This document shows, piece after piece, positions 398 to 6,614 of a DNA stretch of 64,000 bases. The translations under genes were made by a program, and so were the position numbers. Source of the stretch: Trichothermofontia sichuanensis B231. Lineage in GTDB: Bacteria; Cyanobacteriota; Cyanobacteriia; B231. Location of the stretch: positions 3,801,741 through 3,865,740 of the forward strand of contig NZ_CP110848.1 of the NCBI RefSeq assembly GCF_026240635.1, written 5' to 3'. Every line of letters begins with the position of its first letter. Positions within the stretch are counted from its first letter, which is position 1. The notes beneath the pieces are model-generated. The model did not search any database and was not told the DNA's origin. It worked only from the letters and a program-made list of their open reading frames with translations.

Positions 398-3300
398 ATG
401 ACGCTAATGCAGGTTTGGGGGGCACTGGCGATCTTCATCTTGTGCCCCCTGCTGGGGGGCTTGCCGTTGATTGCGGGGATGACTCGCCTGTTGACGGGCA
501 AAAATCTGGCCCAACAGGGGACGGGAAATCTGAGTGTGTCGGCGGCGTTCTACCACGGGGGGGTGATCGTCGGTCTGTGTGCGGTGGTGTCGGAGGCGCT
601 GAAGGGGGTGCTGGCGGTGTTGCTGGCACGGCAATTTTTCCCAACCGGATCGGTGTGGGAGATTCTGGCGCTGATTGCTCTGGTGATGGGGCGCTACGCG
701 ATCGCTAGGGGGGCGGGCACCACTAATGTGTTTTGGGGCTACTGGGTGCATGACTGGCGGGTGGCGGCCCTGGTAACCCTGATTGGGGGGGTGAGCTTTA
801 CGGTGCTGCGGCAACGGCAACAGACCCAGTTTGGGATGCTGGTGTTGCTCCCCCTGGTGATCCTGTTGGTCTATCCCACGCAGGGCGATCGCTGGCTGGC
901 GACGCTGGCCTTGAGTGGGTGTCTGGCGGTTATCTATCGTAAGATTCCGGATGATCTGGGCCTTGCAGCCACGGCGGCCCAACCCCGAAGTCAGCGTATG
1001 TTGCGTTTTTTCCAGGGACATCCGGTCCTGCTGCCCCTCGATCGCGCACCGGCTGCGGCAAAAGTTGGTCAGAAGGCAGCCACGCTGGGGGAATTGTTGC
1101 GCCAGGGCTATCCGGTACCACCGGGATGGGTGCTGCTGCCAGGGGATGATCCGGCGGTTGCCTTAACCCAGCTACACCCAACGCCGATGCAGCCGCTGGT
1201 GGTGCGATCGTCGGCGATCGGGGAGGACAGCGTGGAGGCATCGGCAGCGGGTCAGTACCAAAGTTTTCTCCATATCCGCCATTCGGACCAATTGGCCCAG
1301 GCGATTCGGGATTGCTGGCAGTCCTACGATCGCCCGCAGGCGGTGCAATATCGCCGCGATCGGGGTTTACCGGACGGCAATTTGGCCATCATCATCCAAA
1401 CCCAAATCCGGGGGGTGGTTTCTGGGGTTGCCTTTAGCCGGGACCCGATCGCCCGGTGTGGTGAGGCGGTGATGATCGAGGCGCTGCCGGGGGAGGCAAC
1501 TCAGGTGGTGTCGGGACGGGTGACGCCTGCCGCCTATCGCGTATTGCTCTCGGAAGCAGCCTTTAGCCAAACCCTGGCCCAGGTTGAAACGGCGGTGGCG
1601 GGGGGGCGATTCTCCGAGGGAGACGCCACGGGAATGCTCCCAGAAGTTGATTGGCCGATCGTGCCCGCTGGTGATGCGGCCATCAACCCGGAGATTTCCC
1701 CCACCCTCTTGCGGCAGGTCGCCTTTCTGGCCCGTCGTCTGGAGGCCCACTTCCACGGCATTCCCCAGGATATTGAGTGGACCTATGATGGCGAACGGCT
1801 CTGGTTGCTGCAATCGCGTCCCATCACCACCCTGGTGCCCATCTGGACCCGTAAGATTGCGGCGGAAGTGATCCCAGGGTATATCCGGCCCCTCACTTGG
1901 TCGATTAATCGGCCCCTGACCTGTGGCGTGTGGGGGCAGTTATTCACGATCGTCCTGGGCGATCGTGCCCAGGGGCTGGACTTTAACCAAACCGCCACGC
2001 TCCTGGGGTCCGTTGCCTACTTTAATGCCACCCTGCTGGGAACGATTTTTCGGCGCATGGGGCTACCCCCGGAAAGCCTGGAGTTCCTGACGCGGGGGGC
2101 CAAATTCAGCAAGCCACCGCTCGGCTCCACCCTGCGCAATCTGCCCGGACTGCTGCGCCTGCTCGGTCGCGAGATTTATCTGGAAAAGGATTGGCGTCGA
2201 TCGTACCGACGAAACCTGGAACCCGTTTTGCACGCCCTGTCCCAGGAAACGCTAAGCGATCTGGATCTGCCCGCCCTGTGGGCGCGGGTCGACCGCCTGC
2301 TGACAGCCCTTGAGCAGACAACCTATTACAGCATTCTGGCTCCCTTGAGTTTGGCCCTGCGGCAGGCCATCCTGCGGGTACCGGAGACGGCCCTGGATAC
2401 CCAGTATTTACCCGAAGTTGCGGCCCTGCGAGCGTTGCGGGAGTTGGCAACGGCGATTCAGCATCTGCTGCCCCGCCCCGAATCACAGGGAGACACCCCC
2501 GCCTCCCTTCAAGGGGCTGCCCTCTTCGCCCAACTGGCGGAGTTGCCCGATGCCCGCTCGCTGCTCGAACGGTTTGATCAGATCCGCGATCGCTTTGGTT
2601 ATCTCAGCGAAGTGGCCACGGATATCGCCGTTCCCACCTGGCAGGAAGACCCGCTCCCCCTGCGCAACCTATTGGCCCAGTTTGTCGCCCAACCCCCCGT
2701 TACCCCGGCAGATCCAACTCCCGCCCCCACGCCACCCTCCCTGGCCCAACGCCTGGTACAGCGGCGGCTGATCCTGAAGGGGCAAGTGAGCGAGGTCTAT
2801 AATCGACTGTTGGCGGAACTGCGGTGGACCCTCCTGGCGATCGCCCGTCACTGGCAGGCAGCGGGAATTTTGCCTGAAATTGAGGATATTTTCTTCTTGG
2901 AACTGGCGGAAATTCAGCAGGGTATCGACGCCGGACCCGATATCGCGATCGCCCCCCTTCAGGCAAAGATTCACGATCGCCGTGCCCAATTCGAGGCCGA
3001 TCGCCAGCAACCCCAGCCGCCCCTCCTTGCCTACGGCAACCAACCCCTAACCGTCATGGCCCCGTCCCCGCCAGCGGGCGCGACGATTCTGTACGGATTA
3101 GGGACGAGTCCCGGCCAAGTCACGGGGTACGTCAAGATCCTTAAAACCTGGCAAGCCCTGCCTGCGATCGAGGCGAGCACGATCCTGGTGGTCCCCTATA
3201 CCGATGCGGGGTGGGCACCGCTGTTGGCCCAAGCCGGGGGCATTATTGCCGAAGTGGGTGGTCGGTTATCGCATGGAGCGATCGTGGCTCGTGAATATGG

Positions 3301-3403
3301 TATCCCAGCCGTAATGGATGTCCATAATGCGTGTCAACTGTTGCGCGATGGACAGCGGGTCTGCTTGGATGGACAACTGGGACGGGTTGAGGTCCTGGAT
3401 TGA
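398..3403 (+). CDS. PlsY-like / PEP-synthase-like fusion protein
   Basis: This 1001-residue protein joins two families. Residues 1 to about 190 are a multi-spanning membrane region resembling the glycerol-3-phosphate acyltransferase PlsY: GTGN near residue 41, a later EALKG, and a degenerate RGAGTTN where PlsY carries its glycine-rich third motif. Residues about 215-490 match the ATP-grasp (PEP/pyruvate-binding) domain of pyruvate phosphate dikinase and PEP synthase, with VVRSSAIGED and ending QSRPITT. The C-terminus has the mobile phosphohistidine domain, with the expected histidine at about 959 in GGRLSHGAIVAREYGIPAV. I see no typical C-terminal PEP/pyruvate TIM barrel, so it resembles the ATP-grasp plus His-domain dikinase-like proteins (as in rifampin phosphotransferase) more than a full PEP synthase. 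The substrate is unknown. The link to phospholipid synthesis is inference from the N-terminal domain, whose motifs are weak. Confidence 0.75.
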   Translation: MTLMQVWGALAIFILCPLLGGLPLIAGMTRLLTGKNLAQQGTGNLSVSAAFYHGGVIVGLCAVVSEALKGVLAVLLARQFFPTGSVWEILALIALVMGRYAIARGAGTTNVFWGYWVHDWRVAALVTLIGGVSFTVLRQRQQTQFGMLVLLPLVILLVYPTQGDRWLATLALSGCLAVIYRKIPDDLGLAATAAQPRSQRMLRFFQGHPVLLPLDRAPAAAKVGQKAATLGELLRQGYPVPPGWVLLPGDDPAVALTQLHPTPMQPLVVRSSAIGEDSVEASAAGQYQSFLHIRHSDQLAQAIRDCWQSYDRPQAVQYRRDRGLPDGNLAIIIQTQIRGVVSGVAFSRDPIARCGEAVMIEALPGEATQVVSGRVTPAAYRVLLSEAAFSQTLAQVETAVAGGRFSEGDATGMLPEVDWPIVPAGDAAINPEISPTLLRQVAFLARRLEAHFHGIPQDIEWTYDGERLWLLQSRPITTLVPIWTRKIAAEVIPGYIRPLTWSINRPLTCGVWGQLFTIVLGDRAQGLDFNQTATLLGSVAYFNATLLGTIFRRMGLPPESLEFLTRGAKFSKPPLGSTLRNLPGLLRLLGREIYLEKDWRRSYRRNLEPVLHALSQETLSDLDLPALWARVDRLLTALEQTTYYSILAPLSLALRQAILRVPETALDTQYLPEVAALRALRELATAIQHLLPRPESQGDTPASLQGAALFAQLAELPDARSLLERFDQIRDRFGYLSEVATDIAVPTWQEDPLPLRNLLAQFVAQPPVTPADPTPAPTPPSLAQRLVQRRLILKGQVSEVYNRLLAELRWTLLAIARHWQAAGILPEIEDIFFLELAEIQQGIDAGPDIAIAPLQAKIHDRRAQFEADRQQPQPPLLAYGNQPLTVMAPSPPAGATILYGLGTSPGQVTGYVKILKTWQALPAIEASTILVVPYTDAGWAPLLAQAGGIIAEVGGRLSHGAIVAREYGIPAVMDVHNACQLLRDGQRVCLDGQLGRVEVLD

Positions 3404-3783: not shown

Positions 3784-5565
3784 ATGCAATTACGGCAAAC
3801 AGGGCGATTACGGAGACTGCTGGGTATTGTATTGGCTATCGTTGGGAGTAGCTTACTTCTGAGTGGCTGCAATCTCGATCGCTTTCGCGTAGAAGCGGTA
3901 CAAGTGCCGGAAATTATTACTAGTTTTTTAGGCGATCCCCAAACCTTTAATTCAGCCCTCAGTAAGACCTCACCTAATGTGTTTGCTCTGATTTATGAAG
4001 GATTGATTACCAGTCACGGGATTACCGGGGAAATTCAGCCCGCTCTGGCCGAATCCTGGGAAATTTCCGAGGATAATCTGGCGATTACCTTTCGCCTACG
4101 GAAGGGACTCCGGTGGTCCGATGGCCACCCGCTGACAGCCGATGATGTGATCTTTAGCTATCGCGACATCTACTTAAATGATGCAATTCCCACGGGAGCA
4201 CGCGATATCTTGCGGGTGGGGGTTACCGGTGCATTACCCACGGTTGAAAAAATAGACGATCGTCAGGTAGTCTTTCACGTTCCGGAACCCTTTGCTCCCT
4301 TCCTGCGGAACACGGGTTTACCAATACTGCCTCGTCATATCCTAGCCGCATCTGTCCAAACCCTGGATGCGGATGGAAAACCCCTTTTCCTGTCCAAGTG
4401 GGGAGTGGGGACTCCCCCCCAGGAAATTGTGACAAACGGTATGTATACGATCGCTAGCTACGTCACCGGCCAGCGCATTGTGTTGCAGCGCAATCCCTAC
4501 TACTGGCGGCGCGGCCCCATGGGGGAACCTCAACCCTATGTCCAACGGTTTATCTGGAAAATTGTTGAAAATCGGGATACCCAATTGCTCAAATTTCGTT
4601 CCGGCGATCTCGATGTAGCTGAACCCATGCGACCAGAGGATTTCCCCTTGCTCAAACGGGAGGAGAAACGCGGCAATTTCCGGGTGGAAATGGGCGGCCC
4701 CCGTCCTGGCACGGTCTTTATTTCCTTTAACCTCAACAAAGGCAGCCGCAATGGCAAACCCCTGGTTGATCCCATCAAGTCCAAATGGTTTAATACCCTG
4801 GCTTTCCGACAGGCCGTCGCCTATGCCATCGATCGTGACAAAATGATCGCCAACACCTTTCGGGGACTGGGGGCCAAAATTGATTCGCCGCTGACTAGCC
4901 AAAGCCCCTATTATCTGCCGCCGGCAGCCGGGTTGCCGGTTTATAATTACGACCCGGAAAAAGCCAAGCAACTCTTGTTAGAAGCCGGATTTCGGTATAA
5001 CGATCGTAATGAATTACTCGATGCCAATGGGAACCGGGTGCGCTTTACCCTATTAACCAATGCCGAAAATACGATCCGGGTCTCAATGGCGGCCCAAATT
5101 AAACAAGACCTGGCTAAGATCGGCATTCAGGTGGACTTTACCCCGATCGCCTTCAGTGCGCTGGTAGATAAGTTAGGGAATACCCTGGATTGGGAGTGTC
5201 ATTTACTCGGCTTTACCGGTGGGGTGGAACCCCATAGTGGGTTTAATATCTGGTCTCCCGATGGTTCACTCCATAGTTTTAACCAGAAACCCCTGCCCAA
5301 CCAACCGCCCATTGAAGGCCGACAGGTGGCCGATTGGGAGCAGAAAATTGGTGATTTATACATTCAGGGTGCCCAGGAATTAGATGAGGACAAACGTCGG
5401 CAAATTTACGCTCAAACCCAGATCATCGCCCAGGAACAACTCCCCTTCATTCATCTAGCGACAGAATTGCTCATGTCCGCCGTGCGCAACACCATCCAGG
5501 GAGTGCAATTCTCGGATCTCGAAGGTGCTTTGTGGAATTTATACGAGATCCAGGTAACACCCTGA
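3784..5565 (+). CDS. ABC transporter substrate-binding lipoprotein, peptide/nickel type
   Basis: This 593-residue protein is a family 5 extracellular solute-binding protein (DppA/OppA type). It has a positively charged start, a hydrophobic segment and an LLLSGC lipobox with the lipidated cysteine at residue 29, so it should be anchored to the outer face of the plasma membrane. Typical stretches include LAESWEISEDNLAITFRLRK, WSDGHPLTADDV and the AFRQAVAYAIDRDKM region. Ligand class (oligopeptide, nickel chelate or other) cannot be read from sequence. No permease or ATPase genes are adjacent, so it probably pairs with a transporter encoded elsewhere, as is common in cyanobacteria. The AAGGGG ribosome site abuts the MITE-like element immediately upstream. 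Confidence 0.88.
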   Translation: MQLRQTGRLRRLLGIVLAIVGSSLLLSGCNLDRFRVEAVQVPEIITSFLGDPQTFNSALSKTSPNVFALIYEGLITSHGITGEIQPALAESWEISEDNLAITFRLRKGLRWSDGHPLTADDVIFSYRDIYLNDAIPTGARDILRVGVTGALPTVEKIDDRQVVFHVPEPFAPFLRNTGLPILPRHILAASVQTLDADGKPLFLSKWGVGTPPQEIVTNGMYTIASYVTGQRIVLQRNPYYWRRGPMGEPQPYVQRFIWKIVENRDTQLLKFRSGDLDVAEPMRPEDFPLLKREEKRGNFRVEMGGPRPGTVFISFNLNKGSRNGKPLVDPIKSKWFNTLAFRQAVAYAIDRDKMIANTFRGLGAKIDSPLTSQSPYYLPPAAGLPVYNYDPEKAKQLLLEAGFRYNDRNELLDANGNRVRFTLLTNAENTIRVSMAAQIKQDLAKIGIQVDFTPIAFSALVDKLGNTLDWECHLLGFTGGVEPHSGFNIWSPDGSLHSFNQKPLPNQPPIEGRQVADWEQKIGDLYIQGAQELDEDKRRQIYAQTQIIAQEQLPFIHLATELLMSAVRNTIQGVQFSDLEGALWNLYEIQVTP

Positions 5566-6029
5566 AAAGGGGTTGGTAAAGGCTCGATCGAGAGACTGTT
5601 GACGACTAAAGTCGTTACTACAAACGGCAAACTTAACAAGCCTGAAGGATAGAGGTTTGGCCTATCTGTCCATTGAGGGCTGCATGACTTCCTTCAAGTT
5701 GACGCTTCAGGCTTGGCCGTTTAGGATGGGGGAAGAACCGAACAAGTCTGCCTAATTCGCTGCCGTTCTTCTCATGTCCAAATGTACTCACATTGTCAGC
5801 GGTAACGAAACGGGGGAACCAGTTAAGGGGCGTGTTTCCAACGTTGTCAAGTACCCAAGGTAGGGTTTTGGAAAAGGGCATCTCTCAGCCCTAGCCCGTC
5901 AGCTAACCTCGTCGGCATTGAGAGGAGATTGAATCGTCAGCCTTTTTGTCGTTGACTGTTTCAGTGTCCTAGGTCGTGGTGTGATCACGGCTTGTTCGCT
6001 GTCCATGAATACACTCGCAGGAGGGCTTC
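5566..6029. other. 464-bp gap with no convincing gene
   Basis: Near 5597-5612 there is a small inverted repeat, ACGACTAAAGTCGT. An 82-codon minus-strand frame at 5633-5881 has no motif I recognise and no clear ribosome site, so I do not call it; it may be the remnant of an inserted sequence. The last 15 bases before 6030 hold a good GGAGG site for the next gene. Confidence 0.35.
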
Positions 6030-6614
6030 ATGCAGCCTAGGCCACAAACCTGTGCGACGACCTCAGCCGGGTTACGGGTGGGTGGTGACACCCAGCCAAT
6101 ACCACCGGAGCAAGTCTCGCTGCAACCCGCTATTTCGCGTTTAGAAGCGACCCTATGCTATCCGAATTTGACTCAAGGCCGAATTCTTGTGCCGGCGTCA
6201 CCCCAGGCGCCGGTTACCCCCAGCCCAGAGCAAGCGACCAACTTAGTGGTTGGCTACAATGGCTCCGCCTATAGTCGGGCAGTGCTTGCGTTAACCCTGG
6301 CAATGGCCGAGCAAAAACAATTGCTACAATCCCATCTTGTCCTTGTTCATGTGGTGTATGTGATTGATAAAATCCAGCCCAAAACGATTGCTCAGGCCGA
6401 TCGCATTCTCTGGCAAGCCCGTTGTTTCGCCAGTGAGTGGCGCGGGAAACTCCATGCCCATTTACGAGTGGGTCCTGTAGCCCCAGCCCTCCATCAGACG
6501 GCGGGGGCGATCGCGGCAGAGGCACTCCTGGTTGGCTGCTATACTCCCAAGCATCCCCTTGTCCAAGAATTAGCATCAGAGGTTGCTTATCCCATCTTGG
6601 GCCTGCCTTGGTAG
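6030..6614 (+). CDS. Divergent universal-stress-protein (UspA-like) domain protein
   Basis: The protein has 194 residues. After a 70-residue N-terminal extension, the stretch NLVVGYNGSAYSRAVLALTLAMAE resembles the first strand and helix of the Usp fold (normally V-A-x-D-G-S), followed by HLVLVHVVYV and later AEALLVGCYTP and VAYPILGLPW. The ATP-binding G-2x-G-9x-G(S/T) motif of classical UspA is absent, so nucleotide binding is doubtful. GGAGG sits seven bases before the ATG. It stands alone between two repeat-containing gaps. The family call is by pattern only. Confidence 0.6.
   Translation: MQPRPQTCATTSAGLRVGGDTQPIPPEQVSLQPAISRLEATLCYPNLTQGRILVPASPQAPVTPSPEQATNLVVGYNGSAYSRAVLALTLAMAEQKQLLQSHLVLVHVVYVIDKIQPKTIAQADRILWQARCFASEWRGKLHAHLRVGPVAPALHQTAGAIAAEALLVGCYTPKHPLVQELASEVAYPILGLPW

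What the first reader, a model, noticed from the sequence alone, without database searches (positions are those of the whole stretch)
398..3403. Fusion of a PlsY-like membrane domain to a phosphohistidine dikinase-like enzyme
An acyltransferase-like membrane region precedes an ATP-grasp plus phosphohistidine module without the PEP TIM barrel. The PlsY motifs are degenerate. It may be a membrane-bound phosphotransfer enzyme acting on a lipid or lipid-like substrate.
Basis: partly seen in the sequence, partly recalled or inferred. Interest (0 to 1): 0.5.

Follow-up and report, generated by a model that had tools for sequence, protein, structure and literature searches.

The report
Membrane acyltransferase fold fused to dikinase
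Many cyanobacteria carry one uncharacterised membrane protein that joins a relative of the lipid-building enzyme PlsY, with its substrate site rebuilt, to an ATP-driven phosphate-transfer machine resembling the one that inactivates the antibiotic rifampicin; it may be an unrecognised lipid-modifying enzyme.

Summary
ORF 398-3403 (+, 1001 aa) has an N-terminal PlsY-fold membrane domain (Pfam 50.5 bits, cut-off 24.1; model vs PlsY crystal 5xj7 Z 19.0, rmsd 2.8 over 180 residues), then an ATP-grasp, a ~410-residue middle domain and a C-terminal phosphohistidine domain. The PlsY-like domain is found in 230 of 388 sampled genomes of the class (117 of 160 genera); the window's genome also has a canonical PlsY.

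Among 92 full-length sequences, key ATP-site residues and the phosphohistidine are invariant. RPH's acceptor-site Arg-Glu is replaced, mostly by Lys-Gly. PlsY's acyl-phosphate side is partly kept, its glycerol-3-phosphate clamp is lost, and the replacements are themselves invariant. In three degenerate copies inspected both halves decay together; in one MAG the halves sit on separate proteins. So the membrane part looks like a remodelled active site, not a dead anchor.

Best reading (0.35): the dikinase makes an activated phosphate, probably an acyl phosphate, for a PlsY-like domain that acylates something other than glycerol-3-phosphate. Substrates are unproven. New variant of known kinds.

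The parts
398..3403 (+). whole fusion gene, 1001 aa
   Evidence: homologues
410..967 (+). PlsY-fold membrane domain, aa 5-190
   Evidence: PF02660; 5xj7 Z 19.0; profile alignment to canonical cyanobacterial PlsY, probability 97.0
518..562 (+). motif-1 counterpart aa 41-55 (G-T-G-N-x-x-V-S-A-A-F-Y-H-G-G); T42 = PlsY Ser35, N44 = Asn37, S48 = Thr41, Y52 = Arg45
   Evidence: alignment to 5xj5; counts in 92 sequences
593..607 (+). E66-A67-x-K69-G70, counterpart of the D-x-x-K-G stretch of PlsY
689..739 (+). motif-2 counterpart aa 98-114 (G-R ... A-G-x-T-N-x-x-W-G); R99 = PlsY His92; the Lys104 place is Ala106 or Gly107
   Evidence: the two alignments differ by one residue here
1019..1837 (+). ATP-grasp domain aa 208-480; K226 and R270 take the places of RPH Lys22 and Arg117; 44 residues between them against 95 in RPH
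   Evidence: RPH numbers from PMC4844700
1838..3067 (+). middle, acceptor-type domain aa 481-890, RPH-like layout
2777..2800 (+). K794-G795 ... Y801 where RPH has Arg666-Glu667 and Lys670
   Evidence: counts; spacing read by eye (HMMER itself places gaps here); free-standing paralogue keeps RE..K at that spacing
3080..3400 (+). C-terminal swivel phosphohistidine domain aa 895-1001; His959 at 3272-3274
   Evidence: PF00391 (H959 in 92 of 92)

Best explanation
The protein is a membrane-built, two-centre enzyme. Step 1 (inferred from conserved residues): the ATP-grasp domain cleaves ATP to AMP and Pi and leaves a phosphate on His959. Step 2 (inferred from architecture): the swivelling His domain carries the phosphate to an acceptor bound in the middle domain, whose acceptor site differs from that of RPH. 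I think the likeliest acceptor is a carboxylate such as a free fatty acid, giving an acyl phosphate. Step 3 (inferred): this labile product passes to the attached PlsY-fold domain, which keeps part of PlsY's acyl-phosphate side but has lost the glycerol-3-phosphate clamp, and which therefore acylates some other, unknown acceptor at the membrane. Shown here: fold, layout, residue conservation, spread, joint decay in the few degenerate copies inspected. Not shown: any substrate, product or activity.
For: First half-reaction residues are intact: K226, R270, E460 and H959 in 92 of 92; position 289 (RPH Thr136) S53/T39. PlsY donor side partly kept: S48 91 Ser + 1 Thr (Thr41; T41S keeps 45% in PlsY), and a basic residue R99 92/92 for His92; also T42 92/92 (Ser35; S35T keeps 17%) and N44 92/92 (Asn37) (activities from PMC5700162, passages). 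PlsY acceptor side replaced: Arg45 by Y52 92/92, Lys104 by Ala or Gly, no conserved His or Asn in the motif-3 region. 22 of 25 invariant positions among residues 1-190 fall in four stretches, 80 of 190 positions, that I chose as matching PlsY's active-site loops. The domain is about as conserved as the enzyme domains (mean pairwise identity 0.588; ATP-grasp 0.572, middle 0.542, swivel 0.650). Joint decay of both centres in the three degenerate proteins inspected. In one MAG (G386) a protein keeps 23 of 25 PlsY-like invariants but lost 17 of 42 ATP-grasp invariants, while a separate dikinase without the PlsY-like domain keeps 112 of 116. Precedent for the idea: PlsY fused to a FakB-like fatty-acid carrier, read by its authors as acyl-phosphate channelling (PMC5700162 Discussion part 1).
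Against: No RPH-type dikinase that I read about makes an acyl phosphate; those read act on hydroxyls (PMC4844700, PMC12167813, passages). PlsY His92 tolerates change poorly (H92K keeps about 2%), so R99 may mean that acyl phosphate is no longer the donor. RPH's Arg666-Glu667, essential for its second transfer, is replaced, so even phosphotransfer to a small molecule is not assured. Divergent members of family f11 vary at Y52, K69, A106 and T108. No conserved operon points to lipid metabolism. The MAG case could be a binning error.
Confidence: 0.35

Rival explanations
1. Lipid-alcohol dikinase: the PlsY-fold domain only holds a lipid or isoprenoid alcohol in the membrane, and the phosphohistidine domain phosphorylates its head group; no acyl transfer takes place.
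For: RPH-type acceptors read about are hydroxyls. The PlsY fold has a groove that opens sidewise to the membrane (PMC5700162). The G3P clamp is gone. One copy (L174, G170) lacks the middle domain altogether.
Against: The large middle acceptor-type domain is present in the 92 full-length members (a set chosen by coverage from end to end), which would leave two acceptor sites; the L174 copy is otherwise degenerate; Asn44 and Ser48 of the PlsY site are kept.
Confidence: 0.25
2. Membrane-anchored small-molecule dikinase: the PlsY-like domain is an inactive anchor or docking platform, and the middle domain phosphorylates a soluble compound.
For: Most PlsY acceptor-side residues are lost; the genome has a separate, canonical PlsY.
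Against: Conservation clusters in the active-site stretches and is about as strong as in the catalytic domains. In G386 the dikinase has no anchor while 23 of 25 PlsY-like invariants persist on another protein.
Confidence: 0.2
3. Two linked but separate steps: the PlsY-like domain uses acyl phosphate made by PlsX to acylate a special acceptor, and the dikinase phosphorylates that acceptor or the product.
For: Same residue evidence; canonical PlsY implies an acyl-phosphate pool in the cell (PMC5700162; inference; PlsX was not searched for).
Against: Nothing here separates it from the best explanation; it needs one more substrate.
Confidence: 0.15

Closest known systems
Rifampin phosphotransferase (RPH-Lm) and the small-molecule dikinases around it
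   Same: Order ATP-grasp, large acceptor domain, C-terminal swivel His; Lys22, Arg117, Glu297 and His825 counterparts kept; top structural match by Z
   Different: Arg666-Glu667...Lys670 replaced by invariant Lys, mostly Gly, and a variable residue; shorter N-lobe; membrane domain in front; below the RPH model's cut-off (221 against 999 bits)
PlsY, acyl-phosphate:glycerol-3-phosphate acyltransferase
   Same: PlsY fold (Z 19.0), motif-1 and motif-2 loops in place, PF02660 over its cut-off
   Different: Glycerol-3-phosphate clamp lost; His92 is Arg; own set of invariant residues; only marginal against PlsY crystals by sequence profile (E 0.13)
PlsY-DegV (FakB-like) fusions of Bellilinea caldifistulae and Thermanaerothrix daxensis (as told in PMC5700162; sequences not looked at)
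   Same: PlsY domain fused at its C-terminus to a protein concerned with acyl phosphate
   Different: The partner there is a fatty-acid carrier; here it is a complete phosphohistidine dikinase
Prodigiosin / undecylprodigiosin ligases PigC and RedH
   Same: RedH is the second-best NCBIfam score (238 bits); related enzyme layout, greasy substrates (recalled)
   Different: Far below their cut-offs (RedH 1350, PigC 1300); that they have no PlsY-like domain is recalled, not tested

Membership tests
RPH-type small-molecule dikinases (wider family) | ATP-grasp, acceptor domain and C-terminal swivel His in that order | tested here: met
RPH-type small-molecule dikinases (wider family) | ATP-site Lys and Arg and the phosphohistidine | tested here: met
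   K226, R270, H959 in 92 of 92
RPH-type small-molecule dikinases (wider family) | acceptor-site Arg-Glu with Lys, reported as kept even in the most distant clade Q | tested here: not met
   794 K92; 795 G87 A4 N1; 798 T52 A20 N8 G7 S5; motif present in free-standing paralogue in L073; clade Q from PMC4844700. Register read by eye. So: it works like this family in layout and first step, but the acceptor site is changed, and I do not file it as RPH
RPH proper (rifamycin-inactivating) | NCBIfam NF041857 over cut-off | tested here: not met
   221.4 of 999 bits
PlsY (G3P acyltransferase) | PlsY fold | tested here: met
PlsY (G3P acyltransferase) | G3P phosphate clamp Ser35, Arg45, Lys104, Asn180 and the G3P-binding His177 | tested here: not met
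   Ser35 has a hydroxyl counterpart (T42), Arg45 is Tyr, Lys104 is Ala or Gly; no conserved Asn or His in the motif-3 region
PlsY (G3P acyltransferase) | acyl-phosphate site Thr41 and His92 | tested here: inconclusive
   S48 in 91 of 92, R99 in 92 of 92; loop register differs by one residue between two alignments
PEP synthase / PPDK | PEP-binding TIM barrel at the C-terminus, His domain central | tested here: not met
   no TIM-barrel family matched in 45 of 45 scanned; His domain is C-terminal
any of these | actual enzyme activity | not testable with these tools
   needs protein

The most novel reading that the evidence does not exclude
A self-contained acyl-phosphate synthetase-acyltransferase: a phosphohistidine dikinase activates a carboxylic acid and hands the labile acyl phosphate straight into a PlsY-type cavity rebuilt for an acceptor that is not glycerol-3-phosphate, bypassing PlsX and producing an undescribed acylated cyanobacterial lipid or conjugate.
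Probability: 0.3. Interest if true: 0.8.

Novelty: new variant of a known kind. Interest (0 to 1): 0.5.

Why it matters
In what I read, the PlsY fold serves as the glycerol-3-phosphate acyltransferase that starts phospholipid synthesis. A version spread over 117 of 160 sampled genera of the class, with a different conserved pocket and its own ATP-driven phosphotransfer machine, suggests that the fold has been reused for a second job. It is also a concrete place to test substrate channelling of acyl phosphate, which the PlsY structure authors raised (PMC5700162), and whether phosphohistidine dikinases can activate carboxylates.

Tried and rejected
Ordinary PEP synthase with a lost barrel: rejected, since the layout matches RPH and the genome has another, stronger PPDK_N protein of 429 bits. 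Gene-model or assembly artefact: rejected. Fusion replacing canonical PlsY in two genomes (G051, G064) where only the fusion matched PF02660: followed by synteny and dropped, because in one of them a neighbouring stretch is masked; in the other the absence is unexplained. Not used as evidence either way. Natural split into two genes in G215: it is a frameshift in the linker, so not counted as a split. Conserved operon: none found in 73 loci, several with little flank; partial recurrences are listed under noticed. Literature: searches found no paper; some searches listed 3, 10 and 1 papers, none of whose titles or abstract starts describes this fusion; one search listed nothing on carboxylate activation by such enzymes; some searches gave the PlsY, RPH and fatty-acid-kinase papers (the last seen as listing only). 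Plasmids: 19 records matched, none covering 80% of the protein.

Rows dropped before counts. The 92-sequence set required a match from residue <30 to >980 and length >850, and so favours intact fusions. Left out: L025 (frameshift), L086 (starts at residue 35), L092 and L107 (broken frames), L096, L101, L103, L104, L105 (incomplete), L102 (no PlsY-like domain), L108 and L109 (other phyla) and own-genome loci L002-L005; L006 is the window itself. The divergent f11 members L149, L178, L179, L180 were looked at apart: they keep K794 but have V, I, I, S at Y52, R at K69, G at A106, V at T108 and G, N, N, S at 795. They weaken any claim that Y52 or K69 is essential. The Pfam check of homologues used 45 of the 92, the structure model 64.

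Full report
What is there. The ORF 398-3403 (+) encodes 1001 aa. Pfam finds PF02660 (PlsY family) at 16-181, PF01326 (dikinase ATP-grasp) at 264-479 and PF00391 (phosphohistidine domain) at 925-995, all over their cut-offs, and no PEP TIM barrel; 45 of 45 homologues scanned show the same three families and no other at E<=0.01. A 64-sequence alignment gave a confident model (pLDDT 87.2). Against solved structures, residues 6-207 match PlsY (5xj7 Z 19.0, rmsd 2.8 over 180 residues) and residues 209-1001 match rifampin phosphotransferase (5hv1 Z 24.7, 672 residues; the high rmsd of 17.9 reflects domain placement). By sequence profile alone PlsY was only a marginal PDB hit (E 0.13), while profile-profile comparison with cyanobacterial PlsYs gave probability 97.0.

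Spread. A protein search of 386 genomes of the phylum found a match at E<=1e-30 in 107; this includes some that are not this fusion, such as G013 and G050, which look like ordinary relatives. The named-genome scan gave 74 loci: 72 (L036-L107) from records titled as cyanobacteria, except L091, titled as a Gracilibacteria MAG, and two distant ones from other phyla. The window's genome also has a canonical PlsY (181 bits), and PF02660 matched 376 of 386 genomes in the phylum sample.

The dikinase half. Of the residues tested by mutation in RPH-Lm (PMC4844700, passages), the counterparts of Lys22, Arg117, Glu297 and His825 (K226, R270, E460, H959) are invariant in 92 of 92 full-length sequences; the Thr136 place is Ser 53 or Thr 39. 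The authors found Glu297 dispensable, so E460 adds little. The residue correspondences come from the alignments and, for Lys22 and for Arg666-Lys670, from my reading of spacing. The acceptor-site Arg666-Glu667-x-x-Lys670 is Lys (92 of 92), Gly (87; Ala 4, Asn 1) and Thr 52, Ala 20, Asn 8, Gly 7, Ser 5. A free-standing RPH-like protein near one fusion (L073) keeps RE..K at the same spacing, which supports the register. So the first phosphotransfer should work and the second probably differs.

The membrane half. In PlsY (PMC5700162: passages; Discussion part 1 of 2) Thr41, His92 and the Lys104-Ala107 backbone hold acyl phosphate; Ser35, Arg45, Lys104, Asn180, Ser142 and His177 hold glycerol-3-phosphate. 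In the fusion, Thr42, Asn44, Tyr52, Glu66, Lys69, Arg99, Ala106, Gly107, Thr109, Asn110, Trp113 and Gly114 are invariant in 92 of 92, Ser48 in 91. Twenty-two of the 25 invariant positions among residues 1-190 fall in four stretches, 80 positions in all, that I set to match the PlsY loops; an even spread would give about 10 or 11. The Lys104 place is Ala106 or Gly107 depending on the alignment; neither is basic. Mean pairwise identity of this domain (0.588) is no lower than that of the ATP-grasp (0.572) or middle domain (0.542), though below the swivel domain (0.650). That argues for a working pocket with a new partner. Against it, four divergent f11 proteins outside the 92 have other residues at Y52, K69, A106 and T108.

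Natural experiments. In the two f14/g18 proteins inspected (G058, G211; G083 was not inspected) the motif-1 stretch, the ATP-site loop and the His (now Gln) are all lost, yet frames of about 900 residues persist; a second copy in G170 (601-aa frame) lacks the middle domain and is degenerate in both motif 1 and the ATP site, while keeping the His motif. In G386, a MAG, one protein (500-aa frame, L208) keeps 23 of 25 PlsY-like invariants (Gly70 and Gly114 changed) but has lost 17 of 42 ATP-grasp invariants and ends there, and another, L102, has no PlsY-like domain and keeps 112 of 116 dikinase invariants. GC of the two regions is 0.63 and 0.61, compatible with one genome but not proof. These few cases suggest that both centres are kept or lost together.

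Context. Upstream in this genome is histidinol dehydrogenase, downstream a family-5 solute-binding protein. Across 73 loci no operon is conserved.

Reading. Fold, layout and joint conservation are shown. That the membrane domain is catalytic is inferred; that the product of the dikinase is an acyl phosphate is a hypothesis, favoured because PlsY is built around acyl phosphate, because donor-side features are partly kept, and because PlsY fused to a FakB-like protein has been reported. The main contrary facts are that the RPH-type enzymes I read about phosphorylate hydroxyls, and that His92 of PlsY tolerates replacement poorly.

Noticed in passing
window 5775-5932 (+): c-di-AMP riboswitch (RF00379, 61.6 bits, gathering 38) about 100 bases ahead of the ORF 6030-6614, which has no Pfam match at E<=0.001.
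   Followed up: no
L175 (G211), L177 (G058): Degenerate relatives with the motif-1, ATP-site and His signatures lost, still open over about 900 residues, between an aminotransferase-like gene and a membrane glycosyltransferase-like gene (my reading of the sequence).
   Followed up: partly
L174 (G170), frame of 601 aa: Second, middle-domain-less copy; five other genomes of the same genus label (G420, G437, G525, G608, G614) also show two matches but were not inspected.
   Followed up: partly
L208 / L213 and L102 (G386): The two halves on separate proteins in one MAG.
   Followed up: partly
G064: No canonical PlsY found by PF02660 or by a protein search at E<=1, in a 2-contig genome given as 99% complete; masking elsewhere is not excluded. 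Unexplained.
   Followed up: partly
L049, L055, L063, L088, L097, L107: A YegS-type diacylglycerol-kinase gene lies downstream on the same strand, with an ExoD gene in the same loci, in 6 of 73 loci.
   Followed up: partly
L048, L049, L088, L097: Small cupin gene overlapping the last four bases of the fusion gene in 4 of 73 loci.
   Followed up: partly
window 3784-5565; L064, L065, L066, L072, L073, L075: Peptide-type ABC transporter parts (binding protein, permease or ATPase; by my reading apart from the window's) nearby in 7 of 73 loci, different parts and orientations; perhaps chance.
   Followed up: partly
L052, L059, L068, L069, L070, L076, L085, L095, L099 and L174: A short-chain dehydrogenase close by in 9 of 73 loci of two groups (37-38% identity between them) and an SDR-like ORF (my reading) beside the G170 second copy.
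   Followed up: no
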